A stretch of 64,000 nucleotides of DNA, from contig CADAUA010000001.1 in the NCBI GenBank assembly GCA_902791035.1, positions 310,001 through 374,000 of the forward strand, given 5' to 3'. Shown here piece by piece: positions 22,807-30,916 of this stretch. Both the position numbers and the translations under genes were made by a program. Origin of the DNA: an uncultured Coriobacteriaceae bacterium. Its GTDB lineage: Bacteria > Actinomycetota > Coriobacteriia > Coriobacteriales > Atopobiaceae. The notes below the pieces were generated by a model, which saw only the letters and a program-made list of their open reading frames with translations, was not told the origin of the DNA and ran no database searches. Every line of letters starts with the position of its first letter. The stretch's first letter is position 1.

Positions 22807-23625
22807 TTATCGGGCACCCAGGGACTGGGCCAGAATCCGCAGGTCCAGCTCGTGAATCAGCTGATGCCAGCCATCGGCCGGCAGGGCGTCGGTCGCCCCA
22901 GCACGAATCGCGTCATCTATCTGCGCCAGGGTGCCATGCTGGGCACCGAGAAACTCGCGGGAGTTCGTCCACCTCAAGTCCTGGCGGAAAGCGCAGATGC
23001 ACGCGTACGCACGGACAAGCACATGCGCCTCGGGCAGCCTATAGACCTGCGCGAGCGTCATGTCGGCAAGCTCCGAGCCGAGCGCGAGGCCATCCGCGTC
23101 GAGGCTCTTGCCAGCGAGGTCGCGCGCCCAGCCACGAAGGTCCGAGCGGACGTCCATGAGGGTCTGGCCCAGCAGGTTCTTGCCGTCCCACGTGGCAGGA
23201 TCGGCCAGGTTGGGGTCGCTCAGGCCCATATGGGCACCCCACACCCCATCGCGCGGGGCGGCCTCCACCAGGAGCGCGTTGCCCGTGGAGAGGAGCTGCT
23301 CGCGCAGGGCTGGGTTCTGCAGGAACTTCTCCCTCAGGGCCACGCGCATGAGGGGCCCACGGACCTGCGCCCACAGGTCCTCGTCGTAGGGGCGCACTTC
23401 CTTGCCCAGACTTTTTATCTTGGCAGAGTCGGTCTCGTGCAGGATCTTGTCGGCCACAGTCGCGTCGCCGAAGACGCGCGCCTTGGTCCACATCATGACC
23501 TGCTCGCCACGGCAGAAGCGGTGGCCGAGGTACGTGAACGGTGCCTCGTACCAGTTGCTGAGGTAGCCGTCTAGGTCGTAATCGTGGTAGAAGCCAAGGA
23601 CGTTGGAGGAAGGGACGAGGGGCAT
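22807..23625 (-). CDS. NADAR-domain protein with extra C-terminal domain
   Basis: 272 residues. Residues about 10-165 form a NADAR (YbiA-like) domain: YLSNWYEAPFTYLG, CRGEQVMMWTKA, KSLGKEV, REKFLQNPALREQLLSTG, LVEAAPRDGVWG and WDGKNLLGQTLMDVR. YbiA removes ribose from damaged riboflavin precursors, and other NADAR proteins remove ADP-ribose from guanine next to DarT toxins. Here no DarT is adjacent. The remaining 100 residues (LAQVYRLPEAHVLVRAYACICAF...) form a second helical part that I do not recognise. ATG has GGAGG 6 bp upstream. It lies next to a restriction-modification gene. Confidence 0.85.
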   Translation of the reverse strand: MPLVPSSNVLGFYHDYDLDGYLSNWYEAPFTYLGHRFCRGEQVMMWTKARVFGDATVADKILHETDSAKIKSLGKEVRPYDEDLWAQVRGPLMRVALREKFLQNPALREQLLSTGNALLVEAAPRDGVWGAHMGLSDPNLADPATWDGKNLLGQTLMDVRSDLRGWARDLAGKSLDADGLALGSELADMTLAQVYRLPEAHVLVRAYACICAFRQDLRWTNSREFLGAQHGTLAQIDDAIRAGATDALPADGWHQLIHELDLRILAQSLGAR

Positions 23626-23781: not shown

Positions 23782-26700
23782 CTATTCGTCAAAAGGTATT
23801 ACCGTCTGCTCGATGAATTCAATGTCATCCCTAGAGAGGTCATAGCGCTGGTAGAGCATCTCGTCATTCCAAGGGTGGTCGTAGCTGAGGTCAGGGATAA
23901 ATGCGTAAACGTCACGTGATGCGTGTTGGGTCGATTTCCTAAGTGAAACTAGGAATCGAACAAAGCGCGTGCTTAGATAGGTTGCATAGTTCTCGGCTAG
24001 TTCTCTAGTGGAAAAATGCCCAGCAACGACATATGTTTCTGTACACGCAGTATTAGGGCCCGCCACAATTGGTTTCGATAGGAATCGTCGTTCCACCGAT
24101 GCACTAGTGCCTTGAACCGTCGTCTCTAGTACCTTCCACTCGTCAACCCACTCATTGTTCTGAGTCACGGTGCTTCTATCTATCCAGCTGACACGCTGAG
24201 ACCCATAGAGCATGACGGGATTAGCAAATCCTTCCGGCTCCTCAGCACCATGGAAGTAGGTGCGCATCCCAAAGGGTTTATTGGCGGAAACCCGAGCATC
24301 AAGTGTGGGTTCGCCCTTGGCGACCACCTTCTCCAGTATGGGAACCGCCTCGTTGCGTCGGATGAGCACGTCATATACGTCCAAATACCGCTCCACCGCC
24401 GGACCTACGGGTTTTCCGTCCTCAATGGTCTGCACCGCACACGGTCCGTCATGGTCCCTGTCCCAGAGGAAGTAGGAGATACCACCCCTGATTTTCACGT
24501 TAGGGAAGGGCTCATAAAGGCGCGGGAAGTCCGTGATGCTGCTGAGGTGGTGATCCGCGAGCATACGCGCCCGGAAGTCGTCCAGCCCTTTGCCACCCAC
24601 GAACCATCTGGAAGGAGTGATCATGGAGACATACTCCGGGTTCAGATCGATGGCCGTCTCCACGAAGTGCTGGTAGACGGGCATGGCCGACGCGTTGTTA
24701 CCACCGTCGTCAATCTGGTAGGGCGGGTTACCCACGACTGCCGAGAATTCCATAGCCTTCTCCTTGTGCCAGAAACGGCCAGCCTTTGCCTTGGTAAGGA
24801 ACTGCTTGGGCTTGTTCTGCAGGGTATTCACAAGGTCCTTTACAAAGCGCGCGTTTACCCTCTTGCCCGTGTAGCCCACAAGCGTCCTTGTGGTGATGGC
24901 CTTGGCCATCGGGGTCTTGCATATGACGAAAACGCCCTGATCCACTACGCGCCACCACAGCTCCTGCTGCATGGCAATGGGCATGTCATCGAGCTTGTCG
25001 CCGGTGCGCTGGTGAAACAGGGAATATGCTACGTACAGGGGGTAGAGTCCCGTCTTCGAGTTGATTTCCAATACCTTGCTTGTCACGGTGGAGAAGGTCC
25101 TTCGCGTCACGGCACCACGGTCAACGAAACGCGGCTCGTCGAGCTCTCTGGTATGCGTCTCGTCGAAGAAGTCCCATCCGCCCAGCGTGTCACTCAACTG
25201 CATGTTCACCACTCGCCAAGGCGTGAGCACTGTCTCCTTGTCTGGGTTCTTGAAGTGAGAGAAGAGGCCCGCAATCGTCCGTGTCCGCTCCATAGGGGCA
25301 AGTGTGTCCGCATAGCGCGCAATGTTGCGTATCCTTCTGCCTGCGGCAATGAATACATCTTCGTCGTAGTACTTCTCGAAGCGTCTGAAGATTGCCTTCG
25401 TCACGCCTGCGGGCATGAACTCGCTCCAGGATTGGTCATCTACCACCTTCACGAACGTCTTGAGGTCAATCTCATCCTCGTAGGCGATATCCGCACCAAA
25501 GATGAGCAGGGGCATTCTCACACTGATGCCTGCGAGAATGGATATGGCGGCTTTCCGCTGATCTCTCGCCTTTCTGAGGCGCTCCAGCAGCTCTTTCTCC
25601 TCGGGCGATAAATCCTTCTTTGGTTTCTTTTCCGTTCGCTCGGCTTCCTCGTACTCCTCGTTGGTGAGACCTTGCTGGTTGACTGTAATGTCATGGCTCT
25701 TTTTCTGGGCCACGGTCTCACCGACTATGGCACGCAGGTGGTTGAACCTATCTATCTCTATGTCGTCGAGCTTCAGGAGGGAGTCGTTGTAGAGGTGGGG
25801 ATCATCAAATCCGTTCTCCACCGCGCGTTCTGCATAGGCCCGCTTGAGCTGGCGGAGGAGTTTGCCAGCGTCGTACTCTGCCATAAGTGAGCCCTCTATG
25901 CTGATGACTGGGCAATAGTTGAGGAACTTGCCAAGAGCCTCACGGTCACCTGTAGAGGTCTTCCCTGCCTTTGCAGACACGGCCACGGCCCTTGTCACCA
26001 TCTTGAGGGTACGGTCTGGTGCGAAGTCGAACACGTAGGCGGAGTCCTTCACCTTGCCATTTCTGTTGCAGGGAGACTGGACGCGGAAAATGGTCTGCAG
26101 GTAGCTGCTGGCAGACGTGCTGAAGGTACCCGCAAGCATGAGCACCGCCGTCCACTCGCGCACGGTGACCCCTGTGGTCAACCTGCCACATGACAGCGTG
26201 ATGGTGTACCTGCCCTCACGTTCTGCATTGTCAATCATGTTGGTGACGTATCTGAGAGCATCACCACGCTCCTCGTCGCCTTCGCCAGCCACGTTGAGAA
26301 TCTCGAACTGGCCGCTTCCAAAGACGGGATGCTCAAACATGAGACGCTGAAGGGCGCTTGCGGCCTTCACCCCCGGCACCATCCAAAGGGTATGACGGAA
26401 CTGATCGCGATATTCCTCGCGAGAGAAGGGATAGTGGTTGTCTCCGTCCGTTCGCGTCATGAGATTGAGCAGACTGCGAACGTCCTCCTCATGTTCGAAG
26501 TACTTGCCGTCCTCGGTGCGGAAGAACTCGGCGAAATTGAATGCCTTGTCCTCGACGGCAACATAGTTGTCGTTTGCGAGGGCAGTGCCGAGGTCGTATG
26601 TATAGATTCGGAGCTGGGGCAGTTCCTCGTAGGGATTGGAGTCACCAAAGTGTTCCCTGTCCCATCTCTCCTTGGCCTCCTGCTCCATCACGTAATCCCA

Positions 26701-27702
26701 GGTGTAGACCTCGCCCTGCTCAAATTCGTCGAGAAGATTGAACGGAGTGCCCGAGAGGAGGAGGCACTTGGTGCCGCAGCCCTCTTTAACGACGGCCTTG
26801 ACTGTTGCGTCGCCCAATGCCGTTTTTGTGCCTTCATGGGCCTCGTCTACGATGACGCAATCCCAGACCGTAGAGAACACGAGATCGTTCTTCTGGTACT
26901 TTCCACCTACCTTACCGGAACCGCGCAAGTCCTGTATGGAGGCGAAGTACACGAAGCCAAGGTCGCCCGCGAGCAGGCTCTCAATGCTATTCCCGTGGCC
27001 CTTCGAGCCATAGATGTAGCCGCTATCTGGACCAAATATCTTGTTAAAGTCTTCGTACCATCCATCGTCGACGACGGGCCGGTGGGTCATGATGATGGTT
27101 CTCTTGAAGCCCATCCTTCGCACGACCTCCAGCGCAGATAGCGTCTTCCCGAATCGCATCTTTGCGTTCCATAGCATGTGGTCGGACTTCTTGAACTGCT
27201 TAATGGTGAGATCGATGGCAGCTTGCTGCTCGGGCCGGAACACGATTGTCCCACCACCATCTGCAGTGATTCCCGAAAGATTCCCTCGCCCGGTCTTTAC
27301 TGCAGCGATGGCCGCCCTCACCGTGCCCAAATCAACCCTGAACCACTCTTTGCCGGTAGTTTTGTTGATTCTCTTGGCGTGAATTCCCGAGTTCTCTAAT
27401 ACACGTTGAACGTCATAGTCTCTGAACGCCCGCAGCGCGCTGTCACCCGTGTCGATCTTAACCTGTCGAACGGCTAGCTCCGTGTGAAGCAGCTGGTAGC
27501 TGACGCCAGCCGTGGACGTATAGGAGTCTATACGCTTCCTGGCGGCCTCGTTGAGGTCATGGCAGTTTGGTGGGAGCGAATCGATAGCCTTGCTCGTCTT
27601 TACGGTTGCGTCGCCGACCTTGATACATCCCTTGTGCGCGTCATCGGGAATCGTGAAGGCATAGATGCACTTATACGAGTCGACGGGAACAAACTCATCC
27701 AT
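23782..27702 (-). CDS. Restriction enzyme: GIY-YIG-like, SF2 helicase and Eco57I-type methylase domains in one chain
   Basis: 1306 residues. Residues about 10-125 resemble a GIY-YIG/T5orf172 nuclease (IYAFTIPDD, IKVGDATV, ARKRIDSYTSTAG, LLHTELAV). An SF2 motor follows with MRFGKT (about 182-187), VIVDEAH (about 284-290), LLLSGTPF (about 315-322) and SCGRLTTGVTV. Further on are VVGNPPYQIDD (Asn about 992) and PSRWFVGGKGL, the catalytic and TRD-like parts of an Eco57I/TaqI-type adenine methylase. No SAM-binding motif I was seen in this chain; it lies in the adjacent gene. ATG at 27702 has AAGGGG 8 bp away; a GTG at 27711 is possible. The start overlaps the methylase-subunit stop. Confidence 0.85.
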   Translation of the reverse strand: MDEFVPVDSYKCIYAFTIPDDAHKGCIKVGDATVKTSKAIDSLPPNCHDLNEAARKRIDSYTSTAGVSYQLLHTELAVRQVKIDTGDSALRAFRDYDVQRVLENSGIHAKRINKTTGKEWFRVDLGTVRAAIAAVKTGRGNLSGITADGGGTIVFRPEQQAAIDLTIKQFKKSDHMLWNAKMRFGKTLSALEVVRRMGFKRTIIMTHRPVVDDGWYEDFNKIFGPDSGYIYGSKGHGNSIESLLAGDLGFVYFASIQDLRGSGKVGGKYQKNDLVFSTVWDCVIVDEAHEGTKTALGDATVKAVVKEGCGTKCLLLSGTPFNLLDEFEQGEVYTWDYVMEQEAKERWDREHFGDSNPYEELPQLRIYTYDLGTALANDNYVAVEDKAFNFAEFFRTEDGKYFEHEEDVRSLLNLMTRTDGDNHYPFSREEYRDQFRHTLWMVPGVKAASALQRLMFEHPVFGSGQFEILNVAGEGDEERGDALRYVTNMIDNAEREGRYTITLSCGRLTTGVTVREWTAVLMLAGTFSTSASSYLQTIFRVQSPCNRNGKVKDSAYVFDFAPDRTLKMVTRAVAVSAKAGKTSTGDREALGKFLNYCPVISIEGSLMAEYDAGKLLRQLKRAYAERAVENGFDDPHLYNDSLLKLDDIEIDRFNHLRAIVGETVAQKKSHDITVNQQGLTNEEYEEAERTEKKPKKDLSPEEKELLERLRKARDQRKAAISILAGISVRMPLLIFGADIAYEDEIDLKTFVKVVDDQSWSEFMPAGVTKAIFRRFEKYYDEDVFIAAGRRIRNIARYADTLAPMERTRTIAGLFSHFKNPDKETVLTPWRVVNMQLSDTLGGWDFFDETHTRELDEPRFVDRGAVTRRTFSTVTSKVLEINSKTGLYPLYVAYSLFHQRTGDKLDDMPIAMQQELWWRVVDQGVFVICKTPMAKAITTRTLVGYTGKRVNARFVKDLVNTLQNKPKQFLTKAKAGRFWHKEKAMEFSAVVGNPPYQIDDGGNNASAMPVYQHFVETAIDLNPEYVSMITPSRWFVGGKGLDDFRARMLADHHLSSITDFPRLYEPFPNVKIRGGISYFLWDRDHDGPCAVQTIEDGKPVGPAVERYLDVYDVLIRRNEAVPILEKVVAKGEPTLDARVSANKPFGMRTYFHGAEEPEGFANPVMLYGSQRVSWIDRSTVTQNNEWVDEWKVLETTVQGTSASVERRFLSKPIVAGPNTACTETYVVAGHFSTRELAENYATYLSTRFVRFLVSLRKSTQHASRDVYAFIPDLSYDHPWNDEMLYQRYDLSRDDIEFIEQTVIPFDE

Positions 27703-28648
27703 CTTCTCCACCCCTTACGAGGCTTCTGAATGTAATCGCGCTGCCACCGGACATTGCGCGCCAATCCCTTACCAGACAAGGCACCCCTTCTTGGTGGAAA
27801 CTCTCCATACCCGGAAGTTGATTCGGTCCGTCAAGCACCCTGCGCTGAGCAAATGGCACCTCATATGTTGTGCCATCCATCTGGAAAACATTCCAGACTA
27901 TACGGTTGGCGGCGACCTTCACCCGACGAGCGTCCGGCCATTGGCCATTTCTAAAGCGACTCCACTCGCAGTATGCCGCAAGCAAGTTTTCACGAGCAAG
28001 CAGGACGTTATCTCCTTGAAGATCGAAGGCATAAGTTGCCTCTAACGCCCTGAGCGACCACTTATTCCAGGCCTCATCGTCATTAAGGGTGTTCTCAAGA
28101 ACGACGCGCAACTTCCTATCGAGAAGCCCCATCCTCATCACCATTGGAATCAACTCGCCGCTCTCCGCATTGTAGCGGCTGGTCAGATACGGCGCTTCCC
28201 CGCATGCCATCTCTAGTACGCGCTTGTCAACATAATGTCGCCAGTTCTTATTATCAGTAAACTCTACTTCATGGTCTACCGGCATCCAAGCTTGACTGTT
28301 CTGGTCAACGGAGAAAATTGCATTTTCATGCCCAAACCAGGCAGTATCAAGGAGGTTGTTCTGGGCACAGCAGACAATCGGAGGAGTGAAGACCTCTCCC
28401 ATATTGCGTGTTCTTGTCTGCTGCTCGTCATGCGACTTGAGGGCGCGCGGACGGATAATTTTCTCCATCGGTCCAGTGATGAGGCACGGCAAAATCTGAC
28501 AACTCGGTTGGTACTCCTCACCAAGTTTGGTATACGCGTCAGTAACCCAATAGATATTGCCTCCCGTGGTCTTGTCTACCAACAGAAGCCGCAACAAACT
28601 TGGGGTCAAGTTAAGCAGAAGCGCGTCATGCGTATCAATCTCAACCAT
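27695..28648 (-). CDS. Restriction-modification methylase subunit carrying SAM-binding motifs
   Basis: 317 residues. RNMGEVFTPP (about 81-90) is the N-terminal motif X type of gamma-class adenine methylases. VLEMACGEAPYL (about 144-155) is motif I, and ATYAFDLQGDNVLLARENLL (about 204-223) fits motifs II-III. The catalytic NPPY is missing from this chain and instead occurs in the downstream 1306-residue protein, whose start overlaps this stop by 8 bp. The two probably assemble into one active methylase. ATG at 28648 has only a weak upstream binding site (GAGGTG, 11-bp gap). Protection of host DNA is the expected role. Confidence 0.8.
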   Translation of the reverse strand: MVEIDTHDALLLNLTPSLLRLLLVDKTTGGNIYWVTDAYTKLGEEYQPSCQILPCLITGPMEKIIRPRALKSHDEQQTRTRNMGEVFTPPIVCCAQNNLLDTAWFGHENAIFSVDQNSQAWMPVDHEVEFTDNKNWRHYVDKRVLEMACGEAPYLTSRYNAESGELIPMVMRMGLLDRKLRVVLENTLNDDEAWNKWSLRALEATYAFDLQGDNVLLARENLLAAYCEWSRFRNGQWPDARRVKVAANRIVWNVFQMDGTTYEVPFAQRRVLDGPNQLPGMESFHQEGVPCLVRDWRAMSGGSAITFRSLVRGGEDG

Positions 28649-29289
28649 GCCAGTGCTTACACCTCATATTCCAAAGGGTTCGACACTAGGATAACCCGCC
28701 CATAGGACATATAGAAACATCTAAAACACCTCGCGTCCCACACTAGTGGCTAGCATAAGAACGGAAAGAAACCAGCATCAGAAAACCGATGGCACAACGC
28801 TCAAAACCGTATCGGGAGAATTGAGCGGTTGTCCTTTCTTACAAACAAGCGCCTATGCACCTTGCCTAAGCTCGCTCCAAGAGAGACATCCGGCTTCAAT
28901 GCAAATCGAGCGTCTGCATGCCAATAACGACGGGCACGCAAAGATGATAGGCGGTGCTTCCGTACGCTCGCACCTTGTCATCTGCCCTCCAATACTGAAG
29001 AAGCCGATAAGCCACCACAGGGGCACATGGAGGTCATCCTTGATGCCTTCAAGCAAACCCGTAAGTCTCTTGGTTTTCCCACCCGTGCTCTCTTTCCTAG
29101 GCTCAGCAACAAGACTACGTCAACACTCCTGGACAAATCTGAATAACGGAAGTCTCCCTAATGACAGGGACGGACATTAGGGAGCAGGAAACTGCTATTG
29201 GAGACCTAAATCAAAGATGCGAATAAGCTCAACGTAGATCCAGTGGATTGCCTTATTCAGAGCCACCGCCTCCCGGTGGGGCCCATCCC
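28649..29289. other. 640-bp stretch upstream of the restriction-modification operon
   Basis: Lower in GC than the flanks. Open frames on both strands (for example plus 28746-29180 and minus 28853-29056) have no binding site and no recognisable protein pattern. The RM promoter should lie at its left end. CTCCCTAATGACAGGGACGGACATTAGGGAG near 29153-29183 forms a hairpin with CCCTAATG/CATTAGGG arms, possibly the terminator of the small gene or of the RM leader. Confidence 0.4.
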
Positions 29290-29418
29290 CTACTTGAGCC
29301 TCTTATCCACCTTGAGAAACCCAATCCCCGAGAGCAGCCCTGCCAAGGCACCAACGATGCACGCGACGCCGATATCGCCAAACATGAGCATCCCAAAGAA
29401 GATGCCGATTACTTTCAT
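29290..29418 (-). CDS. 42-residue hydrophobic membrane peptide
   Basis: A short frame encodes 42 residues: a hydrophobic run (VIGIFFGMLMFGDIGVACIV), a Gly/Ala-rich run (GALAGLLSGIGFL) and a basic end KVDKRLK. AGGTGG lies 5 bp before the ATG and a TAG ends it cleanly. The composition (one or two membrane helices with a positive tail) is typical of real small membrane proteins rather than chance. Function is unknown; candidates include a small toxin-like peptide or a subunit of an envelope complex. Confidence 0.5.
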   Translation of the reverse strand: MKVIGIFFGMLMFGDIGVACIVGALAGLLSGIGFLKVDKRLK

Positions 29419-29635
29419 GCCAACCACCTCTCCAAACGTGGTGTGGCTCCTTGGTATGGAGTCACCGTTAGGATGGCAGACCGACCGGACACAAATTCCC
29501 CCAGCGCCTGCACCAACCGGCCGATGCGATCCAACCGACTCCCTGCAGGCACTTCTCTACCACACGGCGCCGCACTACCGGCAGCACCCCTTCCCCGCGA
29601 TAGAATTCCCCAAAGGCAGTCGGATGGGAGCAACC

Positions 29636-30916
29636 ATGAGCGAGTCGGACAACCACCTTCAGCTAGTCGACAACACGAGCGAGCCGCCGGCAATCCCGCA
29701 GCTCTCAAGCGCCGATCTTGTCCTCTCCCCGCTCGACATCGAGGTCGACACGGGCAACGCCATCCGCCTGCCGCTCGACCAAGTACCGGCGTTGGGCGCG
29801 ATGATCGCCTCTCTCCCAAAGGGGCTACGCACCGTGTCCACAACCCAGACCGTCACGCAGTCGTTCTCGTCCCCAAAGGCGCTCATAGCCATGAACGAAG
29901 CGGGCCAGCAGCTCGACCCAAGCATCCTCTTCACATTCAAGGACAGCTTCGGCAGCACCGGCGGCTACCTTGACGCAGCAAATAAGACCAAGCAAGCCCA
30001 CTTAGTGCAGGCCGCTGCCACGAATGCCCAAGCCAAGACGGTCGTCCAGAGCGCCTCGGTCATGCCCCTCAACCTTCCGCAGCTCTTCATGGCAGCCGCG
30101 CTCGTGCAGATAAACGTCAAGCTCGATGCCATCCAAAAGACGCAGGAGGAGATGTTCGCCTACCTCAAGCGGAAGGACAAGGCCAAGCAGCGCGGCAACC
30201 TCAAGGTTCTGGCGGACACGCTCGATGCCTACGCGCAGAACTGGGACAATGTGACCTGGTGCAGCAACCACCACATGAAGGTGATCGACATCCAGCAGGA
30301 TGCCGACCAGAGCGCCATCGAGCTGCGCGCACATATCCGTGAGAAGCTCGGGGAGAGGGGCCTGGTCGAGAGCCGCCTTATGGTTGCGCAGAGGCTCGAC
30401 GCGGTGTGCGACCTCATGAGGGAGTACCAGCTCGCCGTCTACCTCTACGGATTCGCCTCGTTCCTCAAGCCGATGCTCTGCGGGAACTTCGAGGCCGGCA
30501 ACCTCGACCAGGTCTCGTCGAGGATCAACGAGCGGTCAACGCAGTATCGCGAGCACTACACCAGCTGCTACGACGCGATCGAAGCGAGCGCCAAGGGCTC
30601 CGTGGACGCCGCGCTCCTTGGCGGGGTGTCGCTCGTGGGCAAGTCGCTCGGCAGCACGATAGCCGCCTCGCCCGTGGGGGACCTCACGCGGGTCGACGAC
30701 GCCCTCATCGACGGGGGCAAGGCCGTGGAGGAGTTCAACGACGGCCAGACCGAGGCCCTGCTGGCAAGGCTCCGCGAGGCGAAGTCGCCCGGCGTCCGGC
30801 CCTTCATAGAGGGCGTCGACGAGACGAACAGGCTCCACAACCGGCCGCTGAGGCTCCTGGTGGACGCAGAGAGCGTGTACCTGCTGCCCGAGGACGCGAC
30901 CTGCGGCGTGGCGTAG
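29636..30916 (+). CDS. Conserved hypothetical protein with central coiled-coil
   Basis: 426 residues. The first 150 residues are mixed (LVLSPLDIEVDTGNAIRLPL). LPQLFMAAALVQINVKLDAIQKTQEEMFAYL (about 145-175) looks like a membrane-proximal helix leading into a coiled coil, with a Lys-rich stretch (KRKDKAKQRGNLKVLADTL) after it. The rest is helical. I recall similar hypothetical proteins in Firmicutes but no function. ATG at 29636 has GGGAG with a 5-bp spacer; the open frame upstream is not coding. It lies between the RM module and a repeat array, so it counts as accessory. Confidence 0.7.
   Translation: MSESDNHLQLVDNTSEPPAIPQLSSADLVLSPLDIEVDTGNAIRLPLDQVPALGAMIASLPKGLRTVSTTQTVTQSFSSPKALIAMNEAGQQLDPSILFTFKDSFGSTGGYLDAANKTKQAHLVQAAATNAQAKTVVQSASVMPLNLPQLFMAAALVQINVKLDAIQKTQEEMFAYLKRKDKAKQRGNLKVLADTLDAYAQNWDNVTWCSNHHMKVIDIQQDADQSAIELRAHIREKLGERGLVESRLMVAQRLDAVCDLMREYQLAVYLYGFASFLKPMLCGNFEAGNLDQVSSRINERSTQYREHYTSCYDAIEASAKGSVDAALLGGVSLVGKSLGSTIAASPVGDLTRVDDALIDGGKAVEEFNDGQTEALLARLREAKSPGVRPFIEGVDETNRLHNRPLRLLVDAESVYLLPEDATCGVA

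What the first reader, a model, noticed from the sequence alone, without database searches (positions are those of the whole stretch)
23782..28648. Restriction-modification pair with the methylase split over two proteins
Motif X (MGEVFTPP) and SAM motif I (ACG) are only in the 317-residue protein. The catalytic NPPY and target-recognition part are only in the 1306-residue protein, which also has a GIY-YIG-like head and an SF2 motor. A methylase must then form between subunits, so cleavage, translocation and modification are coupled in a way unlike standard type I, IIG or ISP enzymes.
Basis: partly seen in the sequence, partly recalled or inferred. Interest (0 to 1): 0.78.

Follow-up and report, generated by a model that had tools for sequence, protein, structure and literature searches.

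The report
DrdVI-type split-methylase restriction system
This is a member of an already named but little-studied kind of bacterial DNA restriction system (the DrdVI kind), in which the protective methylating enzyme appears to be built from halves carried by two proteins, and its relatives raise the open question of how one DNA-recognition half serves both protection and cutting.

Summary
The two genes are real: 27695-28648(-), 317 aa, and 23782-27711(-), 1309 aa (1306 from the better start). They overlap, and the pair is conserved in 82 of 85 loci with an intact large gene. The small protein has methylase motifs X, I, II, III and no NPPY; the large one has a GIY-YIG-like head, SF2 motor, NPPY and target recognition. 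The system is not new in kind: it belongs to the DrdVI 'split methylase' family (M1, M2, R), filed as Type IIG, with m6A activity shown for M1-2.DrdVI and M1-M2.MaeIV. Here M2 is fused to R. Relatives support a composite methylase: some fuse the small protein to the NPPY half, and viral orphan versions lack the second N-half and R. All 123 second N-halves lost the motif I Gly and the motif II acid, which small proteins keep (118/119, 119/119). How the small protein reaches an NPPY that the dead N-half already covers is open; alternating docking is an untested possibility.

The parts
27695..28648 (-). small protein, 317 aa (M1-like): methylase N-half that binds SAM by inference
   Evidence: ORF; PADLOC PDLC03390 Type II MTase E 2e-82; conserved next to the large gene
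28379..28399 (-). motif X GEVFTPP in the small protein
28184..28222 (-). motif I RVLEMACGEAPYL in the small protein (Gly150)
   Evidence: Gly in 118/119 small proteins; coordinates
28007..28033 (-). motif II YAFDLQGDN in the small protein (acid conserved)
   Evidence: Asp/Glu in 119/119
27761..27778 (-). CLVRDW element near the end of the small protein; in fused relatives the same element lies just before NPPY
23782..27711 (-). large protein, 1309 aa from GTG (1306 aa from ATG at 27702): R-M2 fusion
   Evidence: ORF; PADLOC PDLC03626 Type IIG E 1e-60; Pfam
27292..27711 (-). GIY-YIG/T5orf172-like head (IYAF...KVGDAT, R60, E122)
   Evidence: sub-threshold in window, found in 5 of 8 homologues; Y17, K31, G33, R60, E122 invariant in A2
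25972..27279 (-). SF2 motor: Walker A MRFGKT, DEAH, SGTP, motif VI-like FRVQSP
   Evidence: Pfam ResIII; DEAH in 85/85, MRFGKT in 81/85
24757..25278 (-). second, degenerate methylase N-half of the large protein (motif X-like KETVLTPWRVV; motif I position LEINSKTG with Lys886; motif II-like VFVICKTPMAK without acid)
   Evidence: predicted methylase fold together with the NPPY half
23785..24756 (-). NPPY (995-998) plus target-recognition half of the methylase
   Evidence: Pfam Eco57I E 7e-28; exists as a separate or small-fused protein in relatives

Best explanation
A DrdVI-type split-methylase restriction-modification system: M1 (small protein) plus an R-M2 fusion (large protein). The protective methylase is formed by the SAM-binding N-half on the small protein and the NPPY plus target-recognition half at the C-terminus of the large protein, and puts m6A in a short, non-palindromic site. 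Unmodified sites are handled through the same recognition half by the large protein: the SF2 motor uses ATP and the GIY-YIG-like head cuts. The large protein also has a second methylase N-half that has lost its SAM-site residues and packs on the NPPY half in the predicted structure; it probably ties the recognition half to motor and nuclease. Shown here: gene pair, motifs, predicted folds, natural fusions, minimal orphan forms. Known from papers: m6A activity of M1 with M2 in two relatives. Inferred: composite active site in this pair, ATP-dependent cleavage, role of the dead N-half.
For: Family: plasmid pDrdVI carries the same genes as small | deadN-NPPY | R; PMC6430315, PMC4996451, PMC10113651. 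M2.DrdVI and R.DrdVI match two parts of the one PADLOC model that the window's large protein matches. Composite methylase: small fused to the NPPY half in relatives L111-L113, L129, L130, L132; this fusion is predicted to fold as one methylase (pLDDT 87.6, pTM 0.85; CamA Z 19.0 over residues 94-702). Orphan viral forms have only small + NPPY half, no R and no strong second N-half. Second N-halves have Lys at the motif I Gly in 123/123 and no acid at motif II in 123/123; small proteins keep Gly 118/119 and acid 119/119.
Against: The large protein's own C-terminal 510 residues are predicted to form a complete methylase fold without the small protein (pLDDT 93.3, pTM 0.91, CamA Z 22.3), so the small N-half would have to displace the one already there. 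No complex was modelled. That M2 alone is inactive is not shown in the papers read. The orphan viral records may be fragments and their activity is unknown. Homology of the window-type second N-half to other N-halves is weak by profile alone.
Confidence: 0.68

Rival explanations
1. The large protein is a self-sufficient restriction-methylation enzyme: its own N-half binds SAM in an unusual way, for example with Lys886 near the SAM carboxylate, and the small protein is an accessory subunit that stabilises it, helps flip the base or regulates cutting versus methylating.
For: Complete methylase fold of residues 800-1309; Lys886 and the surrounding LEINSKTGLYPL are almost invariant, which speaks for a function; some phages carry several M2-like proteins with their own N-half beside one small protein.
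Against: Both residues that normally hold SAM are replaced in all 123 second N-halves; relatives exist in which the NPPY half has only the small protein as N-half.
Confidence: 0.24
2. A decayed or inactive remnant of a restriction system.
For: Some relatives are broken (Bifidobacterium IS insertion in L019; split large genes L038, L086).
Against: Both window ORFs are intact with the conserved residues.
Confidence: 0.04

Closest known systems
DrdVI (M1.DrdVI, M2.DrdVI, DrdVI), Deinococcus wulumuqiensis NEB 479, filed as Type IIG; GCAGCC, m6A
   Same: Small N-half protein without NPPY, second N-half with KSG followed by NPPY and target recognition, translocase-nuclease R with GIY-YIG domain
   Different: Three genes in DrdVI; in the window M2 is fused to the end of R, giving two genes. 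Small protein 212 aa against 317 aa; identities 25% (small) and 33% (R part)
M1-M2.MaeIV, Methanococcus aeolicus (split methylase, GCACY, m6A)
   Same: Named in PMC10113651 as the same split-methylase family
   Different: Sequence not compared here; archaeal
Type ISP enzymes LlaGI and LlaBIII
   Same: Nuclease, SF2 motor, gamma-class adenine methylase and recognition domain in the large chain; methylase part matches LlaGI at Z 18.3, rmsd 5.0, 405 residues
   Different: Type ISP is one polypeptide; here an N-half sits on a second protein and the head is GIY-YIG-like
OspHL35III-like Type IIG-like systems
   Same: GIY-YIG nuclease and translocase with an m6A methylase (PMC4752239)
   Different: Described as an undivided MmeI-like methylase/recognition protein with separate translocase and nuclease proteins
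CamA, orphan adenine methylase of Clostridioides difficile
   Same: Closest solved fold for both the large protein's C-terminus (Z 22.3) and the natural fusion (Z 19.0)
   Different: One chain, no nuclease or motor, about 12-14% identity

Membership tests
DrdVI split-methylase family | M1: N-half with motifs X and I, ending before NPPY | tested here: met
DrdVI split-methylase family | M2: NPPY plus target recognition, with a second N-half carrying Lys in motif I | tested here: met
   M2.DrdVI and window large share PDLC03626 and PDLC03375
DrdVI split-methylase family | R: GIY-YIG nuclease fused to a translocase | tested here: met
   ResIII in window; T5orf172 sub-threshold in window, found in 5 of 8 homologues; R.DrdVI matches PDLC03626 at 181-675
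DrdVI split-methylase family | m6A activity of M1 with M2 | not testable with these tools
   shown for DrdVI and MaeIV in papers, not for the window
Type IIG | Single target recognition domain; nuclease and m6A methylase in one polypeptide | tested here: inconclusive
   one recognition half and nuclease-like head in the large chain, but a methylase N-half is on a second protein and there is an SF2 motor; DrdVI is nevertheless filed as IIG
Type ISP | One polypeptide carries nuclease, motor, methylase and recognition | tested here: inconclusive
   the large chain has all four by fold, but its methylase N-half looks SAM-dead and a conserved second protein is present
Type I | Separate specificity subunit (HsdS) with HsdM and HsdR | tested here: not met
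   no HsdS-type protein among the two proteins and seven nearby ORFs scanned; recognition part lies in the large protein

The most novel reading that the evidence does not exclude
One recognition-plus-NPPY half is shared by two competing methylase N-halves: the SAM-binding small protein, giving a modification enzyme, and the SAM-dead N-half linked to motor and nuclease, giving a restriction enzyme. Exchange of N-halves on the same face would set the choice between protecting and cutting, and swapping the shared half (seen as inverted or tandem cassettes in relatives) would change both specificities at once.
Probability: 0.3. Interest if true: 0.75.

Novelty: new member of a known kind. Interest (0 to 1): 0.42.

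Why it matters
The family is widespread (536 relatives of the large protein confirmed in one scan; common on lactococcal and enterococcal plasmids) but in the papers found it is described by gene names, motif and recognition site only. The either-or attachment of the catalytic half, the consistently SAM-dead second N-half and the minimal orphan forms make the question of how one recognition module serves both modification and restriction directly testable. The window's two-gene version is a convenient one for such tests.

Tried and rejected
A scan of genome contigs with the small protein alone found nothing, since its patterns were too specific; the alignment of large proteins worked. The EW/DW near the end of the small protein was first taken for a decayed motif IV; fused relatives show that it lies before NPPY and is part of the N-half. 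The idea that the large protein has no SAM half at all was dropped after alignment and folding. The complex of the two window proteins could not be predicted with the tool; a natural fusion from a viral contig was folded instead. PDB sequence searches gave only chance hits and NCBIfam none. A full-text search for the motif string SKTGLYPL found no paper. The two-gene Type IIG system of Prevotella intermedia (PMC5608340) was considered as a parallel but its proteins were not compared here.

Full report
Observation. The window carries, on the minus strand, a 317-residue ORF at 27695-28648 and a 1309-residue ORF at 23782-27711. The large ORF more likely starts at the ATG at 27702 (1306 aa), just after a GGAG stretch, so the genes overlap by 8 bp. 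Pfam finds SF2/ResIII and Eco57I domains in the large protein, a sub-threshold T5orf172 (GIY-YIG-like) head, and nothing meaningful in the small one. PADLOC models match both: small = Type II methyltransferase PDLC03390 (E 2e-82), large = Type IIG enzyme PDLC03626 (E 1e-60).

Conservation of the pair. tblastn against plasmids finds the large protein in 86 records, many of them lactococcal and enterococcal plasmids, with a short methylase-like gene directly upstream in the regions read. A scan of one genome per species with an alignment of large proteins confirmed 536 relatives, 80 kept, in Bacillota, Bacteroidota, Actinomycetota, Spirochaetota, Verrucomicrobiota and others, plus viral contigs. 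Of 85 loci with an intact large ORF, 82 have the small gene adjacent or overlapping (one on the opposite strand, L063; one downstream, L108); the other three lie near a contig edge.

Motifs. The small protein has motif X GEVFTP, motif I LEMACGEAPY, motif II YAFDLQGDN and a motif III region, and ends before motif IV; none of 119 small sequences has [NDS]PP[YFW]. The large protein has NPPY at 995-998. Before it lie KETVLTPWRVV, KVLEINSKTGLYPL and VFVICKTPMAK in the order X, I, II. Column counts: the first Gly of motif I is Gly in 118/119 small proteins and Lys in 75/75 large proteins, 37/37 separate M2 proteins and 11/11 R-terminal versions; the acid of motif II is Asp/Glu in 119/119 small proteins and never in the 123 second N-halves. 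Profile comparison supports homology between the second N-halves of M2 and R proteins (hhalign 98.7%, E 2e-16) and, in register, between M2 N-halves and the small protein (70%, E 4e-5); for the window-type N-half it is weak (E 1e-3 to 0.14), and the case there rests on motif order and predicted structure.

Folds. AlphaFold2 of window residues 800-1309 with 66 sequences gives pLDDT 93.3, pTM 0.91, a complete adenine-methylase fold: CamA Z 22.3, rmsd 4.7, 421 residues; M.TaqI 18.7; LlaGI 18.3; DrdV 17.9. A natural fusion of a small protein with the NPPY half (L129, 718 aa) gives pLDDT 87.6, pTM 0.85 and matches CamA at Z 19.0, rmsd 5.2, over residues 94-702, so spanning both parts. Both N-halves are therefore predicted to use the same place on the NPPY half. 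A shared fold does not show function.

Arrangements. Four were found: (1) window type, small | R-deadN-NPPY; (2) DrdVI type, small | deadN-NPPY | R; (3) small fused or adjacent to the NPPY half, plus R-deadN, in genomes of the window's own family and order and in some viral contigs; (4) viral orphans with only small and NPPY half, fused or adjacent (L192, L194, L247, L290, phage PTm1 in L139). Whole-record searches of these orphan records found no R and no strong second N-half, only weak matches that fall on the small-type N-half; some records may be fragments. So the NPPY half can be attached to either N-half, and where R is absent the dead N-half is absent too.

Prior art. Plasmid pDrdVI of Deinococcus wulumuqiensis NEB 479 carries arrangement 2. 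PMC6430315 lists M1-2.DrdVI, GCAGCC, 6mA, IIG, cloned and expressed in E. coli. [quoted passage not shown] PMC4752239 describes many IIG-like permutations but does not mention DrdVI. The window pair is thus a member of this family with M2 fused to R. A single PADLOC Type IIG model of 1359 positions already spans R and M2, so the fused form is not new either.

Mechanism. Best supported: the small protein supplies SAM and the large protein's C-terminal half supplies NPPY and recognition. Inferred: the dead N-half links the recognition half to motor and nuclease, and the two N-halves alternate. Against: the large chain is predicted to fold well without the small one, and the complex could not be modelled here.

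Modularity. In L060, L063 and L104 extra NPPY halves occur as separate ORFs beginning at motif IV; in L063 and L104 inverted repeats of 33-37 bp (97%) cover the NPPY codons, and L060 has direct copies. This suggests swapping of the recognition half by recombination within motif IV.

Verdict. Pair real, interpretation partly right, kind already known; the unexplained second N-half is the interesting part.

Noticed in passing
L063:9911-13067, L104:9811-13075, L060:9933-16487: Extra stand-alone NPPY/target-recognition halves downstream of the large gene; inverted repeats over the NPPY codons in L063 and L104 suggest phase-variable specificity by inversion, direct copies in L060.
   Followed up: partly
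L213:3311-10244 and L202:4704-7628: Phage contigs with several methylase proteins that share near-identical N-halves but differ in recognition parts, beside one small N-half protein: a possible shared M1 subunit.
   Followed up: no
L108:6506-11619: Gene order reversed: large gene first, small gene after it.
   Followed up: no
L063:5936-6934: Small gene lies on the strand opposite to the large gene, unlike all other loci.
   Followed up: no
window 22807-23625 (-): NADAR-domain protein directly downstream of the system (Pfam E 7e-41).
   Followed up: no
window 29243-30916 (+): Long ORF upstream of the system without any Pfam match.
   Followed up: no
L019:5872-12687: Bifidobacterium longum plasmid copy with an IS256 element between the small gene and the NPPY gene; the NPPY start is missing there.
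   Followed up: no
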